From: Acidobacteriota bacterium | GTDB lineage: Bacteria; Acidobacteriota; Terriglobia; Acidiferrales; UBA7541 | Direction: 5' to 3' | Length of the DNA: 55,752 nucleotides | Assembly (NCBI GenBank): GCA_003154775.1 | Contig: PMES01000092.1 | Location: 1-55,752 of the forward strand | In this document: piece after piece, positions 17,500-27,119 of the stretch | Layout: each line of letters opens with the position of its first letter | Position numbering within the stretch: position 1 is the first letter of the stretch | Notes under the pieces: model-generated | Told to the model about the DNA's origin: nothing | Databases searched by the model: none | What the model saw: only the letters and a program-made list of their open reading frames with translations | Program-made: the position numbers and the translations under genes

Positions 17500-19227
17500 C
17501 TATGGCTTGCGGGCCAGCGCCTGGCTAACAACGTGCCCCAAATTCTCCAACGCCACCGGGATATCCCCAGTGAGGTGGACCCGGACCACGAAACGATCGC
17601 TCTGCACCAATCCTTCAAATTCGCCCAAAGCGAGCGCGCGATACAATTGCCCAAAAGTATAGGAGGCCCCCGGTATGGCAAGGTCGATTGTTGGCTCGGC
17701 CGTGATCACCAGGAACTGTCCGTGCGGCAGTCCTTTGCGGTGCAGATGGCTGTAGTGGTGGAGTGAATGCGGTCCGTAGGCCACGAGCACTGGAAGCAGC
17801 AGCTTTTCGGCAAGTTTTTTCCGGATGGCCTGGAATGCCGCTAACACACTGGGGGTTTGTGGAAGGAAAACCAAAACCGCAAGGAAGCTTTCCGGCTGAA
17901 GCAACTGGAAGAAGGACCCCAGGGATTCCTCGAGGTTCAACGTGGAGATCTCCCGCCTTGTCTTACCCTCAGCATAGAGTTGCAAGCCTCTGTCATCGAG
18001 GCGCGGCCGGCGGCTCAATGTGTCGCTCGCCGGCGAGTACTTGTTGAGGTATTCCATGGCGATGGCACGAGGCAGCCGAGCTTCGGATTTATCGAAGGGA
18101 TCAAATCCCAATCGAGCACACGCCATGACGGTGGCCACCTCCCAACCAAATGTCACCGGGAGCAGGTCAAGAGGCTCAACAATCTGCACATGAACAAACG
18201 GAACGCCGGAGACGCGGAATCGGCTCATCATATCGGAGAGTTCGGGGTCCGTGTCGCCGGCATGCGTCAATACCGCGAACACCGCCTTTTCCTCCAGCGC
18301 GCGAGTATCGCGCGGGAGCTCTCCGTCGATGGGGATCAAGCCGGGCCCTTCTTTCGCCAGGCTTCCCCCGATTAATTGGCTCAGGCAATAGGTGTACGGA
18401 ACGAGAGACGGCGTCGCCAGAAACGCCACATACTGGCGCTTCGCCAGCGCAGCACCAGAGAGGAAGGCCGCCAGTTGCAAGGCGGGGTTTTCCGCTGGAA
18501 TCGCCACGGGCGAACAGGCATGATGCATCTCTTTCGCCGCCGCCACTATTTCTTCCGGCTCCCTTGTATTTTGCGAAGTCAGGAGAGCGCCAAAGTGCCT
18601 CACGGAAGTAAATGGGGCGAGAATGCCGGAGGGATCAGCAAAGGTAGCCCGGAACTTGTATTCCCGGCCTATGGTGGCAAGGTAGGAACCTGGCTCCGTC
18701 TCGGCCACAAAATGCTGCGGTGGCTGTGGCACGCCAACGGATTGCAGCTTTTCCATGAAATAAAGGAAAAGTGCATGATCTTCCAGGTGGTACCCAACAT
18801 TACTCGCAAAGACGAACAGGCTGCGCTCAAGATTGATTTCTTTCTCCGCGCGCAAAATGGCGCCAGGAGACGCGCTGTCGAGGACCACCATCCTATGATC
18901 ATGACCTGCCTGGACTAATGTCTGAACCGCCCTCGCCGCCAGGCTGGCATTCTCGAACGCGATCAGCACAAGGCCATTGAGACCCTCGGTCCTTGCGGAT
19001 GATTCTGTCTCTCGTATTCCTGCGAGAAAAGGCTCAAGCGAGCCGGACAAGTCCAGCCAGCCCAGATTGGAGAGAATGTGGGATTGCTCGAACTTCTCCT
19101 CCGGCCAAAGCGTGGCGTCTTTCGCCCACAGCCGCTCCAGTACGCGGTTCTCAAGAAAGTACTCGAGCTCTCGATGGAATGTAGTCTGCAAACAGCCGGC
19201 CACGATTGATTGCGTGGGAATCGTCAT
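17500..19227 (-). CDS. Phosphoglucose-isomerase-fold protein with altered active site
   Basis: 575 residues, related to the long PGI or PGI half of transaldolase-PGI fusions: RLWAKDATLWP near the start, GWLDLSGSL, VVLDSASPGAI, LSQLIGGSLAKEGPGLIPID. The usual phosphate-binding loops are changed: GMGGSS is replaced by AFENAS, and SKSGTT by SNVGYH. The start ATG 19227 has GAGGG four bases upstream; the open frame extends a further 19 codons. It leads the gene row with the HAD hydrolase, broken zwf and glk. It could bind sugar phosphates without isomerising them, or have a new reaction. Assignment to the fold is strong by pattern; loss of activity is inference. Confidence 0.7.
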   Translation of the reverse strand: MTIPTQSIVAGCLQTTFHRELEYFLENRVLERLWAKDATLWPEEKFEQSHILSNLGWLDLSGSLEPFLAGIRETESSARTEGLNGLVLIAFENASLAARAVQTLVQAGHDHRMVVLDSASPGAILRAEKEINLERSLFVFASNVGYHLEDHALFLYFMEKLQSVGVPQPPQHFVAETEPGSYLATIGREYKFRATFADPSGILAPFTSVRHFGALLTSQNTREPEEIVAAAKEMHHACSPVAIPAENPALQLAAFLSGAALAKRQYVAFLATPSLVPYTYCLSQLIGGSLAKEGPGLIPIDGELPRDTRALEEKAVFAVLTHAGDTDPELSDMMSRFRVSGVPFVHVQIVEPLDLLPVTFGWEVATVMACARLGFDPFDKSEARLPRAIAMEYLNKYSPASDTLSRRPRLDDRGLQLYAEGKTRREISTLNLEESLGSFFQLLQPESFLAVLVFLPQTPSVLAAFQAIRKKLAEKLLLPVLVAYGPHSLHHYSHLHRKGLPHGQFLVITAEPTIDLAIPGASYTFGQLYRALALGEFEGLVQSDRFVVRVHLTGDIPVALENLGHVVSQALARKP

Positions 19228-19447
19228 GGGCCCTCGTTCACCGCCTGCGAAGCGATCGCAGACGTGCTGAATCGGAAAGCCCACTTGGGGATTGAGGTCG
19301 AGCCTGGTTCAGAACGAGCAGTTTGCCCCTGGAGATAAACAAGAAGAGTGGACCCTGCCGTATAGACCGAGCACAGAGTAGCGAGAACAGCCGCGGCTTG
19401 CAACATCTCTTTCTCTAGCCGAGAATGGTGTCTTCCAGGAGGAACGC

Positions 19448-19780
19448 ATGGCCAATGACTCATGTGGACCCACACCCATGCCCAGCGAGCCCATCAAGCC
19501 GGGGACGCGCATGGTGCATTGTGTGAAGTTCGGCAAGGAAATGCCCGGGTTGGAGCGCATCCCCTGGAAGGGTGAACTCGGCAAGCGCGTCTACGAAAAC
19601 GTCTCCAAGGACGCCTGGAAGATGTGGCTGGAATATTCCAAGATGGTCATGAACGAGTACCGCCTCAATCCCATGGATCCAAACTCGCAAAAAATCATGG
19701 AAGAGCAGATGGAACAGTTCTTCTTTGGCGAAGGCGCGAAATTGCCCGAAGGCTACGTGCCCCCCAAGGCAAAAGGCTAA
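19448..19780 (+). CDS. yggX: YggX-like Fe(2+)-trafficking / oxidative damage protection protein
   Basis: A small cytoplasmic protein that protects iron-sulfur clusters from oxidants. MVHCVKFGKEMPGLERIPWK carries the conserved Cys and the MPGL motif; AWKMWLEYSKMVMNEYRLNP and the C-terminal EEQMEQFFFGEG complete the family pattern. 110 residues against about 90 in E. coli, with extra residues at both ends. AGGAGGAA stands seven bases before the ATG. It is divergent from the isomerase-like gene, with about 220 bases between them in which I see no other gene. Confidence 0.93.
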   Translation: MANDSCGPTPMPSEPIKPGTRMVHCVKFGKEMPGLERIPWKGELGKRVYENVSKDAWKMWLEYSKMVMNEYRLNPMDPNSQKIMEEQMEQFFFGEGAKLPEGYVPPKAKG

Positions 19781-19831: not shown

Positions 19832-21130
19832 TCAGGACAATCTTCCGCCTTTAGGGTGTTCCACTGGCAGGCGCGCCGTCAGCGTGAATTTTAGTTGGGC
19901 ATGAGCAGCGCGCAGCGCCGCCTCCGCTGCTGCCGGCGTATCGCCCCTCGCAAACAGGAAACCAAGATAGCTTGATCCTTCCGGCCAGGCCGCGATGTAA
20001 TCATGCACGCGCGCTGTGATTTCCAGACTGGTGATCCCGGGAATTAGCCGCGCTGGTTCCTCTCCCTCTACACTCTCGAGAACCCCACTCTGCGGCACTG
20101 GAATCATCATGACTCCCGAAGCGGCTGCTTCGCGGACCGCATCGCCGCCCGGCAAACCAAGTGCGTGGCGCAAGAGCAGTTCCTCCAGCCCGATCTCTTC
20201 TTCTGCATCTGCAGAGCAAAATCGCAAGGCCCTGGCGCATAATCCTCCAATGGGCCTGGGCGCCACTTCGATTGGCCAGACTCCCTGTTCATTCAGACGA
20301 AACTCAGCGTGCACCGGGCCGTGCGTCAATCCCAAGGCTCGCACGGCGGATCGCAAAGAGCTTCCGATGGCCCGCTGCTCGGAATCCGGCAACCGTGAGG
20401 GCGTGACATAGATCGTCTCCTCGAAACAAGGCCCCTCCAGCGGATCCGGCTTGTCGAATATCGCCAGTATGCTCAGCGCCCCCTCGGTCAGCAGCGCCTC
20501 GACGGCCACTTCCCTGCCCGGCAGATAGCCTTCAACGAGCATTTGATCCAGATGCGGTTCGCGTGTCGCGCGTATCTCCGGCGATTCCAGAAGTCTTTTC
20601 AGCCGTGTCGCGCCCGCAGCGAACTCCTCGCGATTGTTGGCGCGCACCACCCCCTGGCTGGCCGATAGCGAGAGCGGCTTGAGTACGCAAGGATAGGTGA
20701 TGCCGAGTAGTGCGGGCTCGGGCACGGCATTCAACGAAACGCCGCGGAACCACGGCACCGGAATTCCGGCTTCACGAAAGACTTCCCGCGTGCGCAGTTT
20801 GTTCCGGCAGGCCTCCACGCTCGCCGGATGATTGTGGAGTAGCCCGAGACCCCTTGCCACATACGCTGCCGTGGGCCCCGGACGATCGCCTAAGGCCAAT
20901 ACACCGTCGACACGAAGTCCTCGTTGCGCTTCCAAGACGGCTCGCGCCGCGGTTTCCGGCGATTCAAAATGCGCGGAGAGCGCGCGGTCGTTCCAGGGAT
21001 CGTCCATCCTCCCGCAGCGATCGGTAACAAAAGCAAGCTCCACGCCAAGCTTTTCCGCCGCGGCGTTGAATGAACGCGTCTGGTACCCGAGCTTTGTGGC
21101 AAACAGCAGCAGCCGTTTTAGTGGATTCAT
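19832..21130 (-). CDS. ATP-grasp ligase of unknown substrate
   Basis: About 432 residues. A Rossmann-like pre-ATP-grasp domain (LLLFATKLGYQTRSFNAAAE) is followed by the ATP-grasp fold: CVLKPLSLSASQGVVRANN for the nucleotide lysine and glycine-rich loop, QMLVEGYLPGREVAVEAL, and the metal-binding GPVHAEFRLNEQGVWPIEVA. Such enzymes join a carboxylate to an amine or thiol through an acyl phosphate. ATG 21130 fits homologues better than the in-frame GTG at 21169; neither has a good ribosome-binding site. It starts 27-66 bases after the true stop of the radical SAM selenoprotein, so the two probably form an operon and a shared pathway. Confidence 0.8.
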   Translation of the reverse strand: MNPLKRLLLFATKLGYQTRSFNAAAEKLGVELAFVTDRCGRMDDPWNDRALSAHFESPETAARAVLEAQRGLRVDGVLALGDRPGPTAAYVARGLGLLHNHPASVEACRNKLRTREVFREAGIPVPWFRGVSLNAVPEPALLGITYPCVLKPLSLSASQGVVRANNREEFAAGATRLKRLLESPEIRATREPHLDQMLVEGYLPGREVAVEALLTEGALSILAIFDKPDPLEGPCFEETIYVTPSRLPDSEQRAIGSSLRSAVRALGLTHGPVHAEFRLNEQGVWPIEVAPRPIGGLCARALRFCSADAEEEIGLEELLLRHALGLPGGDAVREAAASGVMMIPVPQSGVLESVEGEEPARLIPGITSLEITARVHDYIAAWPEGSSYLGFLFARGDTPAAAEAALRAAHAQLKFTLTARLPVEHPKGGRLS

Positions 21131-21196
21131 CAAAGTGCGGTCCCGTATTTCATCGACAATAGTTCTCACACAAACACGCGACCGGCTTCGATCAGG

Positions 21197-22642
21197 CTAA
21201 ACAAACGTCTCCGCCTGCCGCACCGCTTCCTTAGCTTTGGCTATCGGGGCCAACTGGTCCCGTGTCGGCTCCGCTCAACAGTACCAGGGCTCGTTGAGAT
21301 AGGGCACCGTCGCCCGCGCGGCCAGAATCGGCATCGCCGATTCTTCCGTTTTCCGGCCGGCAGCGCGATTCGCGGCTCGCCAAATCCGCTCGAACGTCGC
21401 GGTCCGGCTGCGTTTCATCTTCTCGCTCGCGGCAACGATTTCCTGAGCCTCCTCGGCCAGCCGATCCACCATCGGACGGGGATTTTTCCAGGGATAGACG
21501 AGCGCCCCGGCATCGAACGCTCCAACCATCTCACGGACTTCCGGTAATTCCAGCAGCCGCGACCCCGCGGGAATCAACAGGCGAATGGCCAGTTGGATGG
21601 GCGCGACAGCTTCGGCCAGATTGAGCCGCTGCAGATTCTCGAATAGATCCAGGTAGTTTTCAAATGTGGTCCACGGAGTAAATGGAACAAAGGTCGGCTG
21701 AAGTGTGATGCCGGCGCGCAGGCATTCTTCAACGACACGAAAGAAGTCCGCGCGCGTGTGGCCCTTCTGCAGTTTCCGCAAAATATCGTCGTCCAGAGAC
21801 TCGACGGCGGAAATGATGAACAGGCATCCGGTTTGTCTCAGCGTTTGCAGCAATTCGACATTCTGCAGAAGATGCTCCACTTTGATCGTCACGTCATACG
21901 TGAGCGCGGGGAATTCGCGATGCAGCGCTTCCACAAGCGGAATGGCGTGTCCAACTCCATTGAAGAAATCCGGATCGCCAAACGTGATGTGCTGCGCGCC
22001 CGCAGCCACCTGCTGGCGAATATCCGCAAGCACCACCTCCCGGCCGACGATGCGGAAAACACCGTTGTATACCGGCACAATCGGACAATGCCGGCACAAA
22101 TGCTTGCAGCCGCGGCTCGCTTCCGTATATCCCACTGTGCGATGCTCGCCATCCGGCAGCACCAGGTGCGCGTACGAACGCAGCGGCGGCAATCCCGCGC
22201 GGTCCGGCTTTTGGAAACGCAGACGCGCCAGCGAAACACTTGTGTCCAAAGGATGAATCTGCGGCGCAGCCGATAGGCCTTCCAGGTGCTCCGCAAGATC
22301 CACCAGCGCTTGTTCAAATTCGCCCCCCAATAAACTGTTCACACCGTGGGAGCGAAAACTCTCAGCGGAAAGCGAGGCATACAGCCCATAGGCGCACAAA
22401 TGCGCCCTGGGGTGAATGCGGCGGATAGGCTCCAGCAGTTCCAGCGTGAGCCGTGTCGCGGTATGCATCGGCACATAAAATGCCACCAGCCGCGCCTCGC
22501 GCACAGCCTGTTCGTTCAAAGGTTCTCGCGATAAATCCAGGCAAGTTACCGCATGCCCGCGCTCCCGCAGCCAGGCTGCAGGCGAGGCCAGCCCAAACGG
22601 CTGCCGCCCCAGTTCGTACGTCGAGATCAGGACAATCTTCAC
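21197..22642 (-). CDS. B12-binding radical SAM selenoprotein with C-terminal CUAEP motif
   Basis: 481 residues including selenocysteine. N-terminal cobalamin-binding-type domain ([20 protein letters not shown], about 1-125), then a radical SAM domain with C179, C183 and C186 in CKHLCRHC. The frame meets TGA at 21277-21275 directly after EPWYC and then stays open: Ala-Glu-Pro and 22 more residues to TAG at 21199. Cys-Sec-Ala-Glu-Pro is the tail motif of the family I know as CUAEP/CCAEP-tail radical SAM (seleno)protein. A hairpin fitting the bacterial SECIS rule follows the UGA. GTG 22642 is the start, with GGAAAGG just upstream; the ATG nearby is out of frame. Substrate unknown. An annotation ending at 21275 would lose the functional tail. 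Confidence 0.88.
21245..21277 (-). promoter_or_regulatory. UGA selenocysteine codon and putative bacterial SECIS hairpin
   Basis: TGA is at 21277-21275. After 19 bases comes a loop AGTT (21255-21252) closed by CC/GG, an A-C mismatch and CGGG/CCCG (21262-21259 with 21248-21245). Known bacterial SECIS elements have 16-37 bases between UGA and the apical loop and a G among the first two loop bases; both hold here. The stem is short, so the support comes from combining it with the conserved AEP reading after the UGA. Confidence 0.7.
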
Positions 22643-22726
22643 GGCCTTTCCATTATAGCGTTCCCGCGCCGCCGCGAAATTTCGGTTATTATAGAAGCCC
22701 AACCATTGCGTGAAAGGACCCCTAGA

Positions 22727-25396
22727 ATGCCCATCTCCGCAGCAAATTCCTTCGGAACGCGAGACAATCTGAACGTTGGCGCGCAAACTTTTGAAATTCA
22801 GCGTCTCGAAAAGCTGGAAAAGCAGGGCCTCGGTCAATTCACCAGGCTGCCCTTCTCCCTCCGCATTCTCCTGGAAAATCTGCTGCGCTGTGAGGACGGA
22901 CGCTCCGTTCGCGCCGAGGATATCCGCGCGCTCGCAAGCTGGAAACCCGGCGGCGAGCAAAAAGAAATTGCCTTTATGCCCGCACGCGTTCTGTTGCAGG
23001 ACTTCACCGGAGTCCCCGCCATCGTGGACCTGGCCACGATGCGCGAAGCGGTTCAAAAAATGGGCGGCAATCCCAAGCGCATCAATCCCCTTTTCCCCGC
23101 GGAGCTCGTAATCGACCACTCCGTTCAGGTGGACAGTTTCGGCAACGTGAACGCCTTCGGCATGAACGCGGAACTCGAATTCCAGCGCAATGTCGAGCGC
23201 TACGCTTTCCTGCGCTGGGGACAAACCGCCTTCCGCAATTTCAAGGTCGTGCCACCCGATACGGGCATCTGCCACCAGATCAATATCGAGTACCTCGCGC
23301 GGGTGGTCTGCTCCGTTCCAAGCGGCAGCCGCATCGAAGCGTATCCGGATTCGCTCGTCGGCACGGATTCGCACACCACCATGGTGAATTCGCTGGGCGT
23401 GTTCGGCTGGGGCGTCGGCGGAATTGAAGCGGAGGCCGCCATGCTGGGCCAGCCTCTCTCGATGCTCGTCCCCGAAGTCGTGGGCTTCAAGCTCCACGGC
23501 CGGCTTCGCGAAGGAGCCACTGCGACGGACCTAGTTCTTACGGTCACAGAGATGCTCCGCAAGAAAGGCGTCGTCGGGAAGTTCGTGGAGTTCTACGGTT
23601 CCGGCCTTTCCACATTAAGCGTGCCGGACCGCGCCACCATTGCCAACATGGCTCCCGAATACGGCGCGACCATGGGCTTTTTTCCCGTGGACAAGGAAAC
23701 TCTCGCCTATCTGGAATTCACCGGACGTTCGCACGAACACATCGCGCTGGTGGAAGCCTACTGCAAGGAGCAGTATCTCTTCCGGACCGACGCAAGCCCG
23801 GACCCAGCGTTCAGCGACTCGCTGGAGCTCGATCTCGGCAGCGTTGAGCCCACGGTGGCGGGACCCAAACGCCCGCAAGACCGCGTCGCGCTCAAAAACG
23901 CGAAAGCGTCCTTCACGAAAGTGTTAGAAGGCGCGCCCGCAACACAAGTCCCCGTTAAGAACAATGGCGACGCCTTCGAGCTTTCCAGTGGCGCGGTCGT
24001 GATTGCCGCCATTACGAGTTGCACGAACACCTCCAATCCTTCGCTGATGCTCGGCGCGGGATTAGTGGCCAAGAAAGCCGTCGAGCGCGGGTTGCAGGTC
24101 AAGCCATGGGTCAAGACAAGCCTCGCGCCAGGCTCGAAAGTGGTGACGGACTATCTGCAAGCCTCGGGCCTGATGGCGTACCTCGAAAAACTGAAGTTCC
24201 ACCTGGTGGGCTACGGCTGTACAACCTGCATTGGCAACAGCGGACCTCTGTCCGATCCCATCGGCGCTGCCATCAAGGAAAACAATCTCATTGCCGTGGC
24301 CGTGCTGAGCGGCAACCGCAATTTTGAAGGGCGGGTGCACCCGCTGGTGCGCGCGAATTATCTCGCTTCCCCGCCGCTCGTCGTGGCCTACGCGCTCGCG
24401 GGCCGCATGGACATGGACTTGACCACCGAGCCGCTAGGAACTGACTCCGCCGGAAAGCCCGTCTATTTGCGTGAGATTTGGCCTACCGCGCAGGAGGTAG
24501 AATCCACCGTCCGCGCCGCAGTTTCCACAGCGCAATACCGCAAGGTATACAGCGAAGTCTTCGAGGGCGACGCGCGCTGGAAAGCCATGCCCATTCCCGA
24601 AGGCGATCTGTACAAGTGGGATGCGAACTCCACGTACATAAAGCTGCCTCCGTATTTCGAGAACATGCCGAAGACGCCCGCCCCGCTTGCTGATATTCAT
24701 GGTGCGCGCGTGCTCGCGGTTCTCGGCGATAGCGTGACCACCGATCACATTTCCCCCGCGGGTTCCATCGCCGTGGATTCCCCGGCCGGGAAATACCTGA
24801 TCGCTCATGGCGTGAAGCCGCACGAATTCAACTCTTACGGCGCCCGCCGCGGCAATCATGAGGTGATGATGCGCGGCACGTTTGCGAACATCCGCCTCCG
24901 CAATCAGCTTGCCCCGGGCACGGAAGGCAGTTGGACGCTGCATCTGCCCGAGGGCGAAAAGTTGTTTATCTACGACGCTGCGGTGAAGTACCGCGAAGAC
25001 GGCGTTTCCCTGATCGTGATCGCGGGCAAGGAGTACGGCTCCGGGTCCTCGCGCGACTGGGCCGCCAAGGGCACCCGGCTGCTCGGCGTGCGCGCCGTCA
25101 TCGCGGAGAGCTACGAGCGCATTCACCGCAGCAACCTCGTGGGCATGGGCGTGCTCCCGCTGGAATTCCAGCCCGGCGAAACTCGCGAATCACTTGGCCT
25201 GACGGGACACGAGGTGTTCTCGATTGATGGCGTGTCTGCGCTAGCGCCACGGAAGCAAGTCACCGTTCGCGCCAAGTCGGCGGACGGAACGCAGAAAACC
25301 TTCACGGCAACTGTGCGGGTGGATACGCCGGAAGAGGTGGCGTATTACAAGCATGGCGGCATTCTGCAGTATGTCCTCCGCCAAATGCTCGAATAG
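22727..25396 (+). CDS. acnA: Aconitate hydratase A
   Basis: Interconverts citrate and isocitrate in the TCA cycle with a [4Fe-4S] cluster. 889 residues, typical for AcnA/IRP-type aconitase. Cluster ligands are Cys432 (SCTNTSN) and Cys498/Cys501 ([10 protein letters not shown]). [19 protein letters not shown] is conserved, and the swivel domain has [15 protein letters not shown] and [13 protein letters not shown]. The ATG 22727 start matches the family N-terminus; the open frame upstream is not coding. Only 84 bases separate it from the divergent radical SAM selenoprotein gene, so promoters overlap there. Cytoplasmic. Confidence 0.96.
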
Positions 25397-25461: not shown

Positions 25462-26868
25462 TTAGCTGCGGCCTTCGCGTTTCTGCGCAAGCACCAGGCC
25501 GCGCGGGGTGGGCAGGAGCAACACGGAGATGAGTCCCTCAGCTTCGAGTCGCAGGGCACCTTCACGCACACTCTTCATTGCCGAACTTGCATCGTGTATG
25601 AGGATGAGCCCGTACGGATTGATCTGCGGCAGGAAGCGGCGCACCTCTTGTTCGCGCAGTGGCCCATCGCTGTCACAAAAAAGCATGTCGATGCGGCCGT
25701 CAATCTTCATCTCAAGGCTGGATTCGTTGCGCGCCACAATCCATTTGCCGAGCCCGGATCCGGCGAAGCGTTTCTTCGCGGCTTCGTACACTTTCTTGTC
25801 CCACTCGCAGGTGATCACGCGGCCGACGCCGTTCTGCTTCAAGCCCTCCGCGATGCGCAGCGTGCTCAGGCCAGAGAATGTGCCGGTCTCCACGACCAGC
25901 TCGGGCTTGACCGTAGTGACTAGGGCCTTCAGAAAATCGAGAACTTCCACTTCCGCGCTCATCGAGTCATACATATGCCACCGTTCCGGATGCTGGCATT
26001 CGGGTGTTGGGCGATGATACTCGGGTTGCAGCACATCACCGTGGGAAGAAATGTGTTCGACAATGCGATGTTCTTTTTTCAGCGTGTGGTATTGACTCTT
26101 AATACGCCAAAGAAGCACCGCGCCGGCAAGGATGGACAGCACGCTGACGATCTGTGCATTGGTCAAACCCAGAAATACACGTGGGTTGATGCGGATGATC
26201 TCCACCAGAAAGCGTGCGACGCCGGTGAGGATCAGGTAAGCGCAGAAAATTTCGCCCTTGGCCTTCGGGCCCTTCAGCGCTTTCGTGCCCATGTGCCACA
26301 GGAAGGCGCCAATCGCGCACCAGATGAAAAATTCGTAGATCGGAGTGGGATGCACACGACAGCTCGGCGGCCACCCCTGCTGCACGCACGTTATCGTGGT
26401 GGGCATAACTCCGTTCGGAAAGCTCATGCCCCACGGCAAGGTCGTTGGCGTTCCGTAATCGCCGTCGCCGGAGAGCAGGCAGCCCATTCGCCCGATCGCA
26501 TAGCCAAACGAGGCCGCGGGCGTGCAGGCGTCCAGAAACTCCAGCAGAGGAATTTTGGCCCGCCTGCCGAGAATGAGCATTGCAAAAAAACCGCCGAGGA
26601 ATCCCCCAAACCAGGTGAAGCCATAGCGATTGAAGAGTTGCGCGACCGGATGGGCAAGAAATTCCGTGGGCGATTCGAGCGCGCTGTACAGCTTCGAACC
26701 GAAGATGCCCGCCAATCCGGCGATCGTGATCATGGTGAACGCGTCGGCTTTTACGCCACGGCGGTCGAAATCTGCTTGAAAAATGTAGGCAGCGCAGATC
26801 ATACCCAGCGCCACCATCAGACCGTACGTGGGAATCGATAAGGGGCCTATGTGAAGGAAGGGGATCAT
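25462..26868 (-). CDS. lgt: Prolipoprotein diacylglyceryl transferase fused to a methyltransferase domain
   Basis: 468 residues. Residues 1 to about 275 are Lgt, the inner-membrane enzyme that attaches diacylglycerol to the lipobox Cys of prolipoproteins: about seven hydrophobic segments, FTWFGGFLGGFF, the signature GRMGCLLSGDGDYG, HPTPIYE and RFLVEIIRINP. From about 300 a class I SAM methyltransferase follows (VVETGTFSGLSTLRIAEGL motif I, MLFCDSDGP, ILIHDAS), of the Methyltransf_24 type. One uninterrupted frame covers both. ATG 26868 gives the normal Lgt N-terminus (IPFLHIGPLSIPTYGL). The second domain would lie in the cytoplasm. Its substrate is unknown; I do not know this fusion as a standard architecture. 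Confidence 0.85.
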   Translation of the reverse strand: MIPFLHIGPLSIPTYGLMVALGMICAAYIFQADFDRRGVKADAFTMITIAGLAGIFGSKLYSALESPTEFLAHPVAQLFNRYGFTWFGGFLGGFFAMLILGRRAKIPLLEFLDACTPAASFGYAIGRMGCLLSGDGDYGTPTTLPWGMSFPNGVMPTTITCVQQGWPPSCRVHPTPIYEFFIWCAIGAFLWHMGTKALKGPKAKGEIFCAYLILTGVARFLVEIIRINPRVFLGLTNAQIVSVLSILAGAVLLWRIKSQYHTLKKEHRIVEHISSHGDVLQPEYHRPTPECQHPERWHMYDSMSAEVEVLDFLKALVTTVKPELVVETGTFSGLSTLRIAEGLKQNGVGRVITCEWDKKVYEAAKKRFAGSGLGKWIVARNESSLEMKIDGRIDMLFCDSDGPLREQEVRRFLPQINPYGLILIHDASSAMKSVREGALRLEAEGLISVLLLPTPRGLVLAQKREGRS

Positions 26869-27119
26869 AGAGTTGGCAGGCGCGCCTTCAAGATTATACA
26901 CGAGGCAACGTGGAGAGCCTCCCAAGCTGCTGGGGCCCGGACGAGAGATGCGAGGCTAAGGCTGGATGCCCCACCCTCGTTTTCGGAGGTCGGCACCGGC
27001 GCCATTCTAATTCGCGGTGAATTGCTACAGTGGTATCCTAACCAACAACGTGTGACCCAAACCAATCAGGGGAATTCCGTACGGGCCACCTGCCATGGGA
27101 TCATGAGTTCGGAGCAAAT

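What the first reader, a model, noticed from the sequence alone, without database searches (positions are those of the whole stretch)
21197..22642. The radical SAM gene is a selenoprotein: Cys-UGA-Ala-Glu-Pro tail read through to TAG
Seen: the frame reaches TGA (21277-21275) right after EPWYC, and the next codons read Ala-Glu-Pro and then 22 more residues to TAG at 21199, with good coding character ([20 protein letters not shown]). Known: a radical SAM family with a C-terminal CUAEP or CCAEP motif has selenoprotein members, and the N-terminal sequence here fits it. Inference: UGA is recoded as selenocysteine 456. A standard gene caller would end the protein at the UGA and lose the probably redox-active Cys-Sec pair.
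Basis: partly seen in the sequence, partly recalled or inferred. Interest (0 to 1): 0.85.

Follow-up and report, generated by a model that had tools for sequence, protein, structure and literature searches.

The report
Selenocysteine-tailed radical SAM enzyme
A soil bacterium's enzyme gene carries a stop-like UGA codon that is very probably read as selenocysteine, which places it in an already named selenoprotein family; what is added here is that, in the genomes sampled, the gene goes with a partner ligase gene and usually lies near iron-sulfur upkeep genes, a first testable clue to its job.

Summary
Window 21197-22642 (-) encodes a 481-residue radical SAM protein with UGA as codon 456 (WYC-U-AEP). 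It belongs to NCBIfam NF040546, 'CUAEP/CCAEP-tail radical SAM (seleno)protein' (639 bits, cut-off 500), so the kind is already named. Of 80 related loci, 79 cover the codon: 59 TGA, 20 TGC/TGT, nothing else. A stem-loop 12 nt after the UGA is kept in TGA genes (60 genes: 93% of stem cells paired, 62% after synonymous resampling; second set of 38: 92%, 60%) and not in Cys genes (20: 59%, 53%; 8: 44%, 43%). The genome has selA, selB, selC and selD. Beyond the finding: in 297 Acidobacteriota genomes all 50 with this gene also have the neighbouring ATP-grasp ligase; 4 of 247 others do. Nfu-type carrier, YggX or aconitase genes lie in the fetched stretches around the pair in 45 of 49 other genomes, around selB in 0 of 20. 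Best function guess, unproven: a Cys-Sec tail serves an ArsL-like radical enzyme in a two-gene pathway linked to Fe-S upkeep.

The parts
21197..22642 (-). CUAEP-tail radical SAM selenoprotein gene, 481 aa (GTG start, TAG stop)
   Evidence: NF040546 639 bits; Radical_SAM PF04055; CxxxCxxC at residues 179-186
21275..21277 (-). in-frame UGA, codon 456, read as selenocysteine
   Evidence: 59 TGA, 14 TGC and 6 TGT in 79 homologous loci; 38 TGA and 8 TGC in a second set of 46
21245..21262 (-). SECIS-type stem-loop 12 nt after the UGA (CGGGACC-AGUU-GGCCCCG; 6 of 7 pairs, one A.C mismatch)
   Evidence: conserved in TGA genes, not in Cys genes; coordinates
21200..21274 (-). C-terminal tail AEP...ETFV translated past the UGA
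   Evidence: alignment A1
19832..21169 (-). ATP-grasp / L-amino-acid-ligase-type gene, next gene in the same direction, partner of the radical SAM gene
   Evidence: PF13535 and LAL_C2 PF18603; a homologue in 50 of 50 sampled genomes with the radical SAM gene
19448..19780 (+). YggX-type iron-trafficking protein, PF04362
   Evidence: ORF; a homologue in the fetched stretches of 21 of 49 other genomes
22553..25396 (+). aconitase AcnA, divergent neighbour; the ORF's first start is used here, the true start is probably near 22730, so the overlap with the radical SAM gene is an ORF-calling effect
   Evidence: TIGR01341 1392 bits, match from residue 84; NF006757 from residue 64

Best explanation
Supported by sequence evidence: the gene encodes a radical SAM protein of family NF040546 whose C-terminal Cys-UGA is recoded as Cys-Sec. 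SelB with Sec-tRNA(UCA) would be recruited by a stem-loop 12 nt after the UGA, and translation would run 25 codons further to the TAG. Inferred: the Cys-Sec pair, on a tail after the radical SAM core, acts at the active site, either as a redox-active vicinal pair, as in the C-terminal Cys-Sec of mammalian thioredoxin reductase (recalled), or as a soft-metal or substrate ligand, as the Cys-Cys tail of its sister enzyme ArsL may do. Because an ATP-grasp ligase was found in every sampled genome that has the gene, and Nfu, YggX or aconitase genes usually lie near the pair, I think the two enzymes most likely make a small amino-acid-derived compound used in iron or Fe-S cluster upkeep. My probability is about 0.95 for Sec decoding and about 0.3 for this functional step. 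The confidence below is for Sec decoding plus family membership.
For: Family 639 bits against a cut-off of 500. Codon 456 is TGA in 59 and Cys in 20 of 79 loci, with AEP or SEP following in every one. Sec and Cys exchange at least 6 times on a quick tree built without residue 456 and the tail. Hairpin: 0.934 of stem cells paired in 60 TGA genes against 0.617 (sd 0.016) after synonymous resampling; 0.589 against 0.531 (sd 0.028) in 20 Cys genes; 59 of 60 TGA genes have at most one mismatch. Second set, none identical in sequence to the first: 38 TGA genes 0.918 against 0.602 (sd 0.02), 8 Cys genes 0.440 against 0.43 (sd 0.04). Own genome: selB 361.5 bits, selA 543.4, selD 349.9, tRNA-Sec with TCA anticodon. 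selB over its cut-off in 53 of 59 TGA genomes (27 of 30, 26 of 29). In the phylum sample selB in 35 of 38 genomes with a TGA in the match, against 150 of 247 genomes without the family. ATP-grasp homologue in 50 of 50. Nfu, YggX or aconitase in 45 of 49, control 0 of 20. ArsL-type tail CCLKC aligned with the CU tail.
Against: In the window's own 38 nt the minimum-energy fold is a different hairpin (-13.4 kcal/mol; the conserved one with its A.C mismatch scores -8.8), and that alternative is itself above resampling in TGA genes (0.804 against 0.626) and slightly so in Cys genes (0.667 against 0.590). Rfam gave no match in the region. Six of 59 TGA genomes showed no selB over the cut-off: L016, L022, L040 (two part-matches on two contigs, the likely cause), L059, L063, L077; L022, L040, L059 and L063 lie in genomes of 1.3-2.2 Mb, L016 and L077 in genomes of 4.5 and 6.9 Mb. 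In the phylum sample 3 of 38 lacked it, of 95%, 75% and 75% completeness. 17 of 20 Cys-type genomes also have selB, so the machinery does not decide which residue is used. The functional step rests on gene context only; 24 of 80 loci of the first set show neither Nfu nor YggX, among them seven Bryobacter/Solibacter-clade loci (L064, L080, L081, L085, L088, L090, L091) that also lack a nearby ATP-grasp gene. The model gives the Cys-Sec block a mean pLDDT of 81, so it does not itself show a floppy arm.
Confidence: 0.93

Rival explanations
1. The UGA is a genuine stop: the protein ends at Cys455 and the tail is an untranslated relic.
For: The mechanical ORF here and the public T. roseum CDS end at the TGA.
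Against: AEP or SEP follows in 79 of 79 covering loci; Cys replaces the codon in 20; the hairpin goes with TGA and not with Cys.
Confidence: 0.03
2. The UGA is read through by another route (near-cognate tRNA or a suppressor) that gives Trp or Cys instead of Sec.
For: Not excluded for any single genome, in particular for the 6 of 59 TGA genomes without a clear selB.
Against: Only Cys codons alternate with TGA, no Trp codon, in 79 and 46 sites. A hairpin sits at SECIS distance. A complete Sec system is in this genome. TGA is also the terminal stop in 30 of 60 TGA genes and 17 of 20 Cys genes, so a general reassignment of UGA in these genomes is unlikely.
Confidence: 0.03
3. The enzyme works like ArsL: it transfers the 3-amino-3-carboxypropyl group of SAM to a metalloid or chalcogen held by the Cys-Sec tail, and the ATP-grasp ligase then joins the product to an amino acid.
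For: ArsL is the second-best NCBIfam hit (275.8 bits). The ArsL-type tail CCLKC aligns with the CU tail. A Priestia cluster with an RCCLKC-tail member also carries an ATP-grasp gene related to the window's (26% over 252 aa, E 6e-21).
Against: No ars gene among the five window neighbours scanned or the recurrent neighbour families scanned; other neighbours were not annotated. The score is below the ArsL cut-off of 450.
Confidence: 0.25
4. Nfu and YggX merely rebuild the radical SAM enzyme's own Fe-S cluster, as NfuA does for lipoyl synthase; the product has nothing to do with Fe-S upkeep.
For: Nfu lies directly beside the radical SAM gene in many genomes. NfuA is needed to regenerate the LipA auxiliary cluster (title of a cited reference seen in PMC8593673).
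Against: Nfu or YggX also lies near the ATP-grasp gene where that is on another contig than the radical SAM gene: G080, G123, G152, G159, G189, G200; contig breaks in drafts weaken this. No auxiliary-cluster Cys set was identified.
Confidence: 0.3

Closest known systems
NCBIfam NF040546, CUAEP/CCAEP-tail radical SAM (seleno)protein
   Same: Match over residues 3-465, 639 bits over a cut-off of 500; CUAEP tail
   Different: No difference found in the protein; the partner ATP-grasp gene, the SECIS-type hairpin and the Fe-S context are not in the model's name (its curation notes were not seen), and no paper in the held library used the motif name
ArsL, arsinothricin radical SAM enzyme (NF040542)
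   Same: 31% and 34% identity to two members, same core, C-terminal vicinal Cys pair
   Different: RCCLKC instead of CUAEP; 275.8 bits, below the 450 cut-off; no arsM or arsQ among the neighbours scanned
Other radical SAM selenoproteins (TIGR04167; TrsS NF045646)
   Same: Radical SAM proteins with Sec, listed in the review PMC13188914 (passages seen)
   Different: Neither appears among the 14 NCBIfam hits of this protein
Thioredoxin reductase C-terminal Cys-Sec
   Same: Vicinal Cys-Sec near a C-terminus (recalled)
   Different: Unrelated protein (recalled); here 25 residues follow the Sec

Membership tests
NF040546 CUAEP/CCAEP-tail radical SAM (seleno)protein | score over the curated cut-off of 500 bits | tested here: met
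   639 bits over residues 3-465
NF040546 CUAEP/CCAEP-tail radical SAM (seleno)protein | C-terminal CUAEP or CCAEP | tested here: met
   YCUAEP at residues 454-459
bacterial selenoprotein | in-frame UGA aligned with Cys in homologues, conserved past it | tested here: met
   59 TGA and 20 Cys of 79 loci; 38 TGA and 8 Cys of 46
bacterial selenoprotein | SECIS element just after the UGA | tested here: met
   60 and 38 TGA genes against 20 and 8 Cys genes; caveats: the window's own lowest-energy fold differs and Rfam gave no match
bacterial selenoprotein | selA, selB, selC, selD in the genome | tested here: met
bacterial selenoprotein | selenium present in the protein | not testable with these tools
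   needs 75Se labelling or mass spectrometry
ArsL (NF040542) | score over the curated cut-off of 450 | tested here: not met
   275.8 bits
ArsL (NF040542) | C-terminal RCCLKC | tested here: not met
   tail is CUAEP
cobalamin-binding radical SAM enzymes | B12-binding fold | tested here: inconclusive
   model resembles OxsB Z 27.7, AprD4 Z 27.5, TsrM Z 25.9; PF02310 25.6 bits, under its 32.1 cut-off
cobalamin-binding radical SAM enzymes | DxHxxG cobalamin motif (recalled; some members lack it) | tested here: not met
   absent in the window protein and in 31 of 31 rows of A1

The most novel reading that the evidence does not exclude
A two-enzyme pathway, a selenocysteine-tailed radical SAM enzyme plus a co-occurring ATP-grasp ligase, makes an unknown amino-acid- or peptide-type compound that buffers iron or protects Fe-S enzymes such as aconitase. 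It would take over part of glutathione's role in soil bacteria in which no gshB was found, and it may use ArsL-type carboxypropyl chemistry.
Probability: 0.25. Interest if true: 0.75.

Novelty: new member of a known kind. Interest (0 to 1): 0.45.

Why it matters
A gene caller that stops at the UGA cuts the last 26 residues, with the reactive Sec, off this enzyme, as happened in the public T. roseum record; expressed in a host that cannot read the signal it would be truncated (inferred). The strict pairing with an ATP-grasp ligase in the sampled genomes and the Fe-S gene company turn an enzyme family whose name states no function into a defined, testable two-gene pathway, sister to arsinothricin chemistry.

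Tried and rejected
Rfam on 301 bases around the site gave no match up to E 5, so no curated SECIS family is claimed. PDB sequence search gave one sequence, AprD4 (6fd2), E 5.5e-4. Position of the tail relative to the cluster: the structure tool returns no coordinates, so not tested; block means of pLDDT are 63 for residues 431-440, 81 for 451-460 (which hold the Cys-Sec pair), 58 for 461-470 and below 50 after. Glutathione replacement: gshB matches in 16 of 297 Acidobacteriota genomes at E 1e-40 and in none of the 50 with this gene (compared by eye with the list), but gshB is rare and 12 of the 16 lie in one family, so this is weak. One fixed stem register for the TGA genes fitted poorly (291 of 420 cells); two registers, loop of 4 or 5 nt, were used, and taking the better register was applied to the resampled sequences too. 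Literature: no held paper with CUAEP or CCAEP as the motif (5 hits, unrelated by title); none with selenoprotein, ATP-grasp and radical SAM together; none with selenoprotein, Acidobacteria, selenocysteine and radical SAM; the broader listings named no paper on this family (titles and abstract starts only). NF040546 does not occur in the main text of the review PMC13188914 (find). The two selenoprotein-family papers by Haft and colleagues that it cites are not held, so prior description of the partner gene cannot be excluded. The search (Thermomicrobium roseum with selenocysteine) gave 3 papers, none read.

Full report
What is there. The reverse strand of 21197-22642 encodes a 481-residue protein in which codon 456 is TGA (21277-21275), directly after EPWYC; translation continues [25 protein letters not shown] to TAG at 21199-21197. 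The protein scores 639 bits against NCBIfam NF040546 'CUAEP/CCAEP-tail radical SAM (seleno)protein', cut-off 500, over residues 3-465, and matches Pfam Radical_SAM. CxxxCxxC stands at residues 179-186.

Is the UGA decoded? 79 of 80 cover the codon: 59 TGA, 14 TGC and 6 TGT, no other codon, with AEP or SEP following in each; L050 is matched only to residue 428. On a quick tree of 80 rows (79 loci plus the window), made without residue 456 and the tail, Sec and Cys exchange at least six times, four of them forced by starred branches. TGA is also the terminal stop in 30 of 60 TGA-type genes, so UGA is not reassigned in general.

Recoding element. In the RNA after the UGA, a stem of 6-7 pairs starts 12 nt downstream and closes a loop that begins AGUU or AGGU. 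Across 60 TGA genes (window included) 93.4% of stem cells pair, against 61.8% (sd 1.7) when codons are resampled synonymously; the 20 Cys genes give 58.9% against 53.2% (sd 2.9) (repeated: z 20.3 and 2.1). Loop position 2 is G in 60 of 60 TGA genes; the Cys genes show four loop types. Stem pairs include compensated types, for example G-C, A-U, C-G and U-A at one pair of the second register. A second set, from the phylum sample and with no sequence identical to the first, was scored with the same registers: 38 TGA genes 91.8% against 60.2% (sd 2.1), loop position 2 G in 36 of 38; 8 Cys genes 44.0% against 42.9% (sd 4.1). Resampling does not model relatedness; the Cys genes are the better control. 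Folding energy against synonymous resampling: mean z -0.93 in TGA genes and 0.01 in Cys genes (Mann-Whitney p 2e-4; raw energies differ less clearly, p 0.07). Against it: in the window itself one pair is A.C, the conserved hairpin scores -8.8 kcal/mol and an alternative hairpin -13.4; the alternative is also above resampling in TGA genes (0.804 against 0.626) and slightly in Cys genes (0.667 against 0.590); Rfam has no match.

Machinery. The window's genome (4.63 Mb, 98.2% complete) has selB (361.5 bits), selA (543.4), selD (349.9, itself with one in-frame TGA) and a tRNA-Sec with anticodon TCA. selB passes the cut-off in 53 of 59 TGA genomes and 17 of 20 Cys genomes (L050's genome was not searched; misses among TGA: L016, L022, L040, L059, L063, L077; among Cys: L046, L049, L065). 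In a sample of 297 Acidobacteriota genomes, 50 carry the family at E 1e-100, 48 of them over its cut-off: 38 with a TGA in the match, 8 reaching the tail without a stop, 4 whose match ends before it. Read at the site itself in the fetched stretches, the 49 other genomes give 38 TGA (37 of the above plus G292, whose gene is split over two contigs), 8 TGC, and 3 not covered (G080, G207, G267). selB is found in 35 of the 38 genomes with a TGA in the match, and in 150 of 247 genomes without the family (Fisher p 8e-5, not corrected for relatedness).

Annotation loss. In Thermomicrobium roseum the public CDS ends exactly at the TGA, though the next codons read AEP.

A partner gene. The next gene in the same direction, 19832-21169, is an ATP-grasp ligase with an L-amino-acid-ligase C-terminal domain; it passes no NCBIfam cut-off. 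It is a neighbour in 62 of 81 loci, window included. In the 297-genome sample, a homologue at E 1e-60 is present in 50 of 50 genomes with the radical SAM gene and in 4 of 247 without; 33 pairs lie within 1.5 kb, one lies 30 kb apart and 16 have the two matches on different contigs. Some of these 16 are contig breaks: in G292 the rest of the radical SAM gene lies directly beside the ATP-grasp gene. The Fisher value ignores relatedness; by genus the counts are 38 and 39 of 167.

Company of Fe-S genes. I fetched 66 stretches of 5-15 kb around the two genes in the 49 other genomes of the 50. 45 of 49 contain an NfuA-type Fe-S carrier (24), a YggX-type protein (21) or aconitase (7). The four without are G120, G167, G267 and G289; in G120 and G167 the ATP-grasp gene lies within 150 bases of the contig end. 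The same queries found none in 20 stretches, 262 kb, around selB of 20 of these genomes. In the 80 loci of the first set, 56 show Nfu or YggX, among them the Methylomirabilota loci L067, L068, L070 and L089 (Nfu) and the Tectomicrobia loci L058 and L075 (YggX), so the link crosses phyla. 24 of 80 show neither; several of these are short, but seven Bryobacter/Solibacter-clade loci (L064, L080, L081, L085, L088, L090, L091) show neither of these nor a nearby ATP-grasp gene. In the window, YggX lies at 19448-19780 (+) and AcnA at 22553-25396 (+).

Mechanism. The model (mean pLDDT 88.6) has the fold of cobalamin-type radical SAM enzymes: OxsB Z 27.7, AprD4 Z 27.5, TsrM Z 25.9, MgmA Z 25.8. DxHxxG is absent in 31 of 31 rows of the alignment, so cobalamin use is open. 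The sister family ArsL, whose Burkholderia member is proposed to move the carboxypropyl group of SAM to arsenite (PMC8552651, abstract and passages seen), ends in CCLKC, which the alignment sets against the CU tail. Both families therefore carry a vicinal pair at or near the end of the chain. A Priestia cluster with an RCCLKC-tail member has an ATP-grasp gene related to the window's (26% over 252 residues). I infer a Cys-Sec arm that acts at the active site, and a pathway in which the ligase extends the product. The model does not show the arm as floppy: its block has mean pLDDT 81, after a weaker linker of 63. Reviewed work ties NfuA to Fe-S maturation under oxidative stress (PMC8593673, passages seen); the review also cites a study of yggX and gshA mutants and the labile iron pool (title only). 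This makes an iron- or Fe-S-protecting compound the most economical guess, at about 0.3. Its main rival is that Nfu and YggX only service the radical SAM enzyme's cluster.

Verdict. Selenoprotein: well supported, in a family already named. 

Noticed in passing
window 25462-26925 (-): Prolipoprotein diacylglyceryl transferase (Lgt) in one frame with a C-terminal methyltransferase domain; near-full-length matches of the whole fusion in L026, L045 and L052.
   Followed up: partly
genome contig C102:51375-52337 (L103): SelD of the same genome has an in-frame TGA, so it is probably a selenoprotein too.
   Followed up: no
L043, L057, L060, L086, L093, L117: A DUF169 (COG2043) gene sits beside or near the radical SAM gene, between it and the ATP-grasp gene in L043, L057 and L060.
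   Followed up: partly
L123 9935-11371: Public T. roseum CDS of the CUAEP protein stops at the TGA although its product name includes the tail.
   Followed up: yes
window 17500-19284 (-): 594-aa protein like the isomerase half of a bifunctional transaldolase/phosphoglucose isomerase (303 bits, under the 712 cut-off), without a Pfam match.
   Followed up: no
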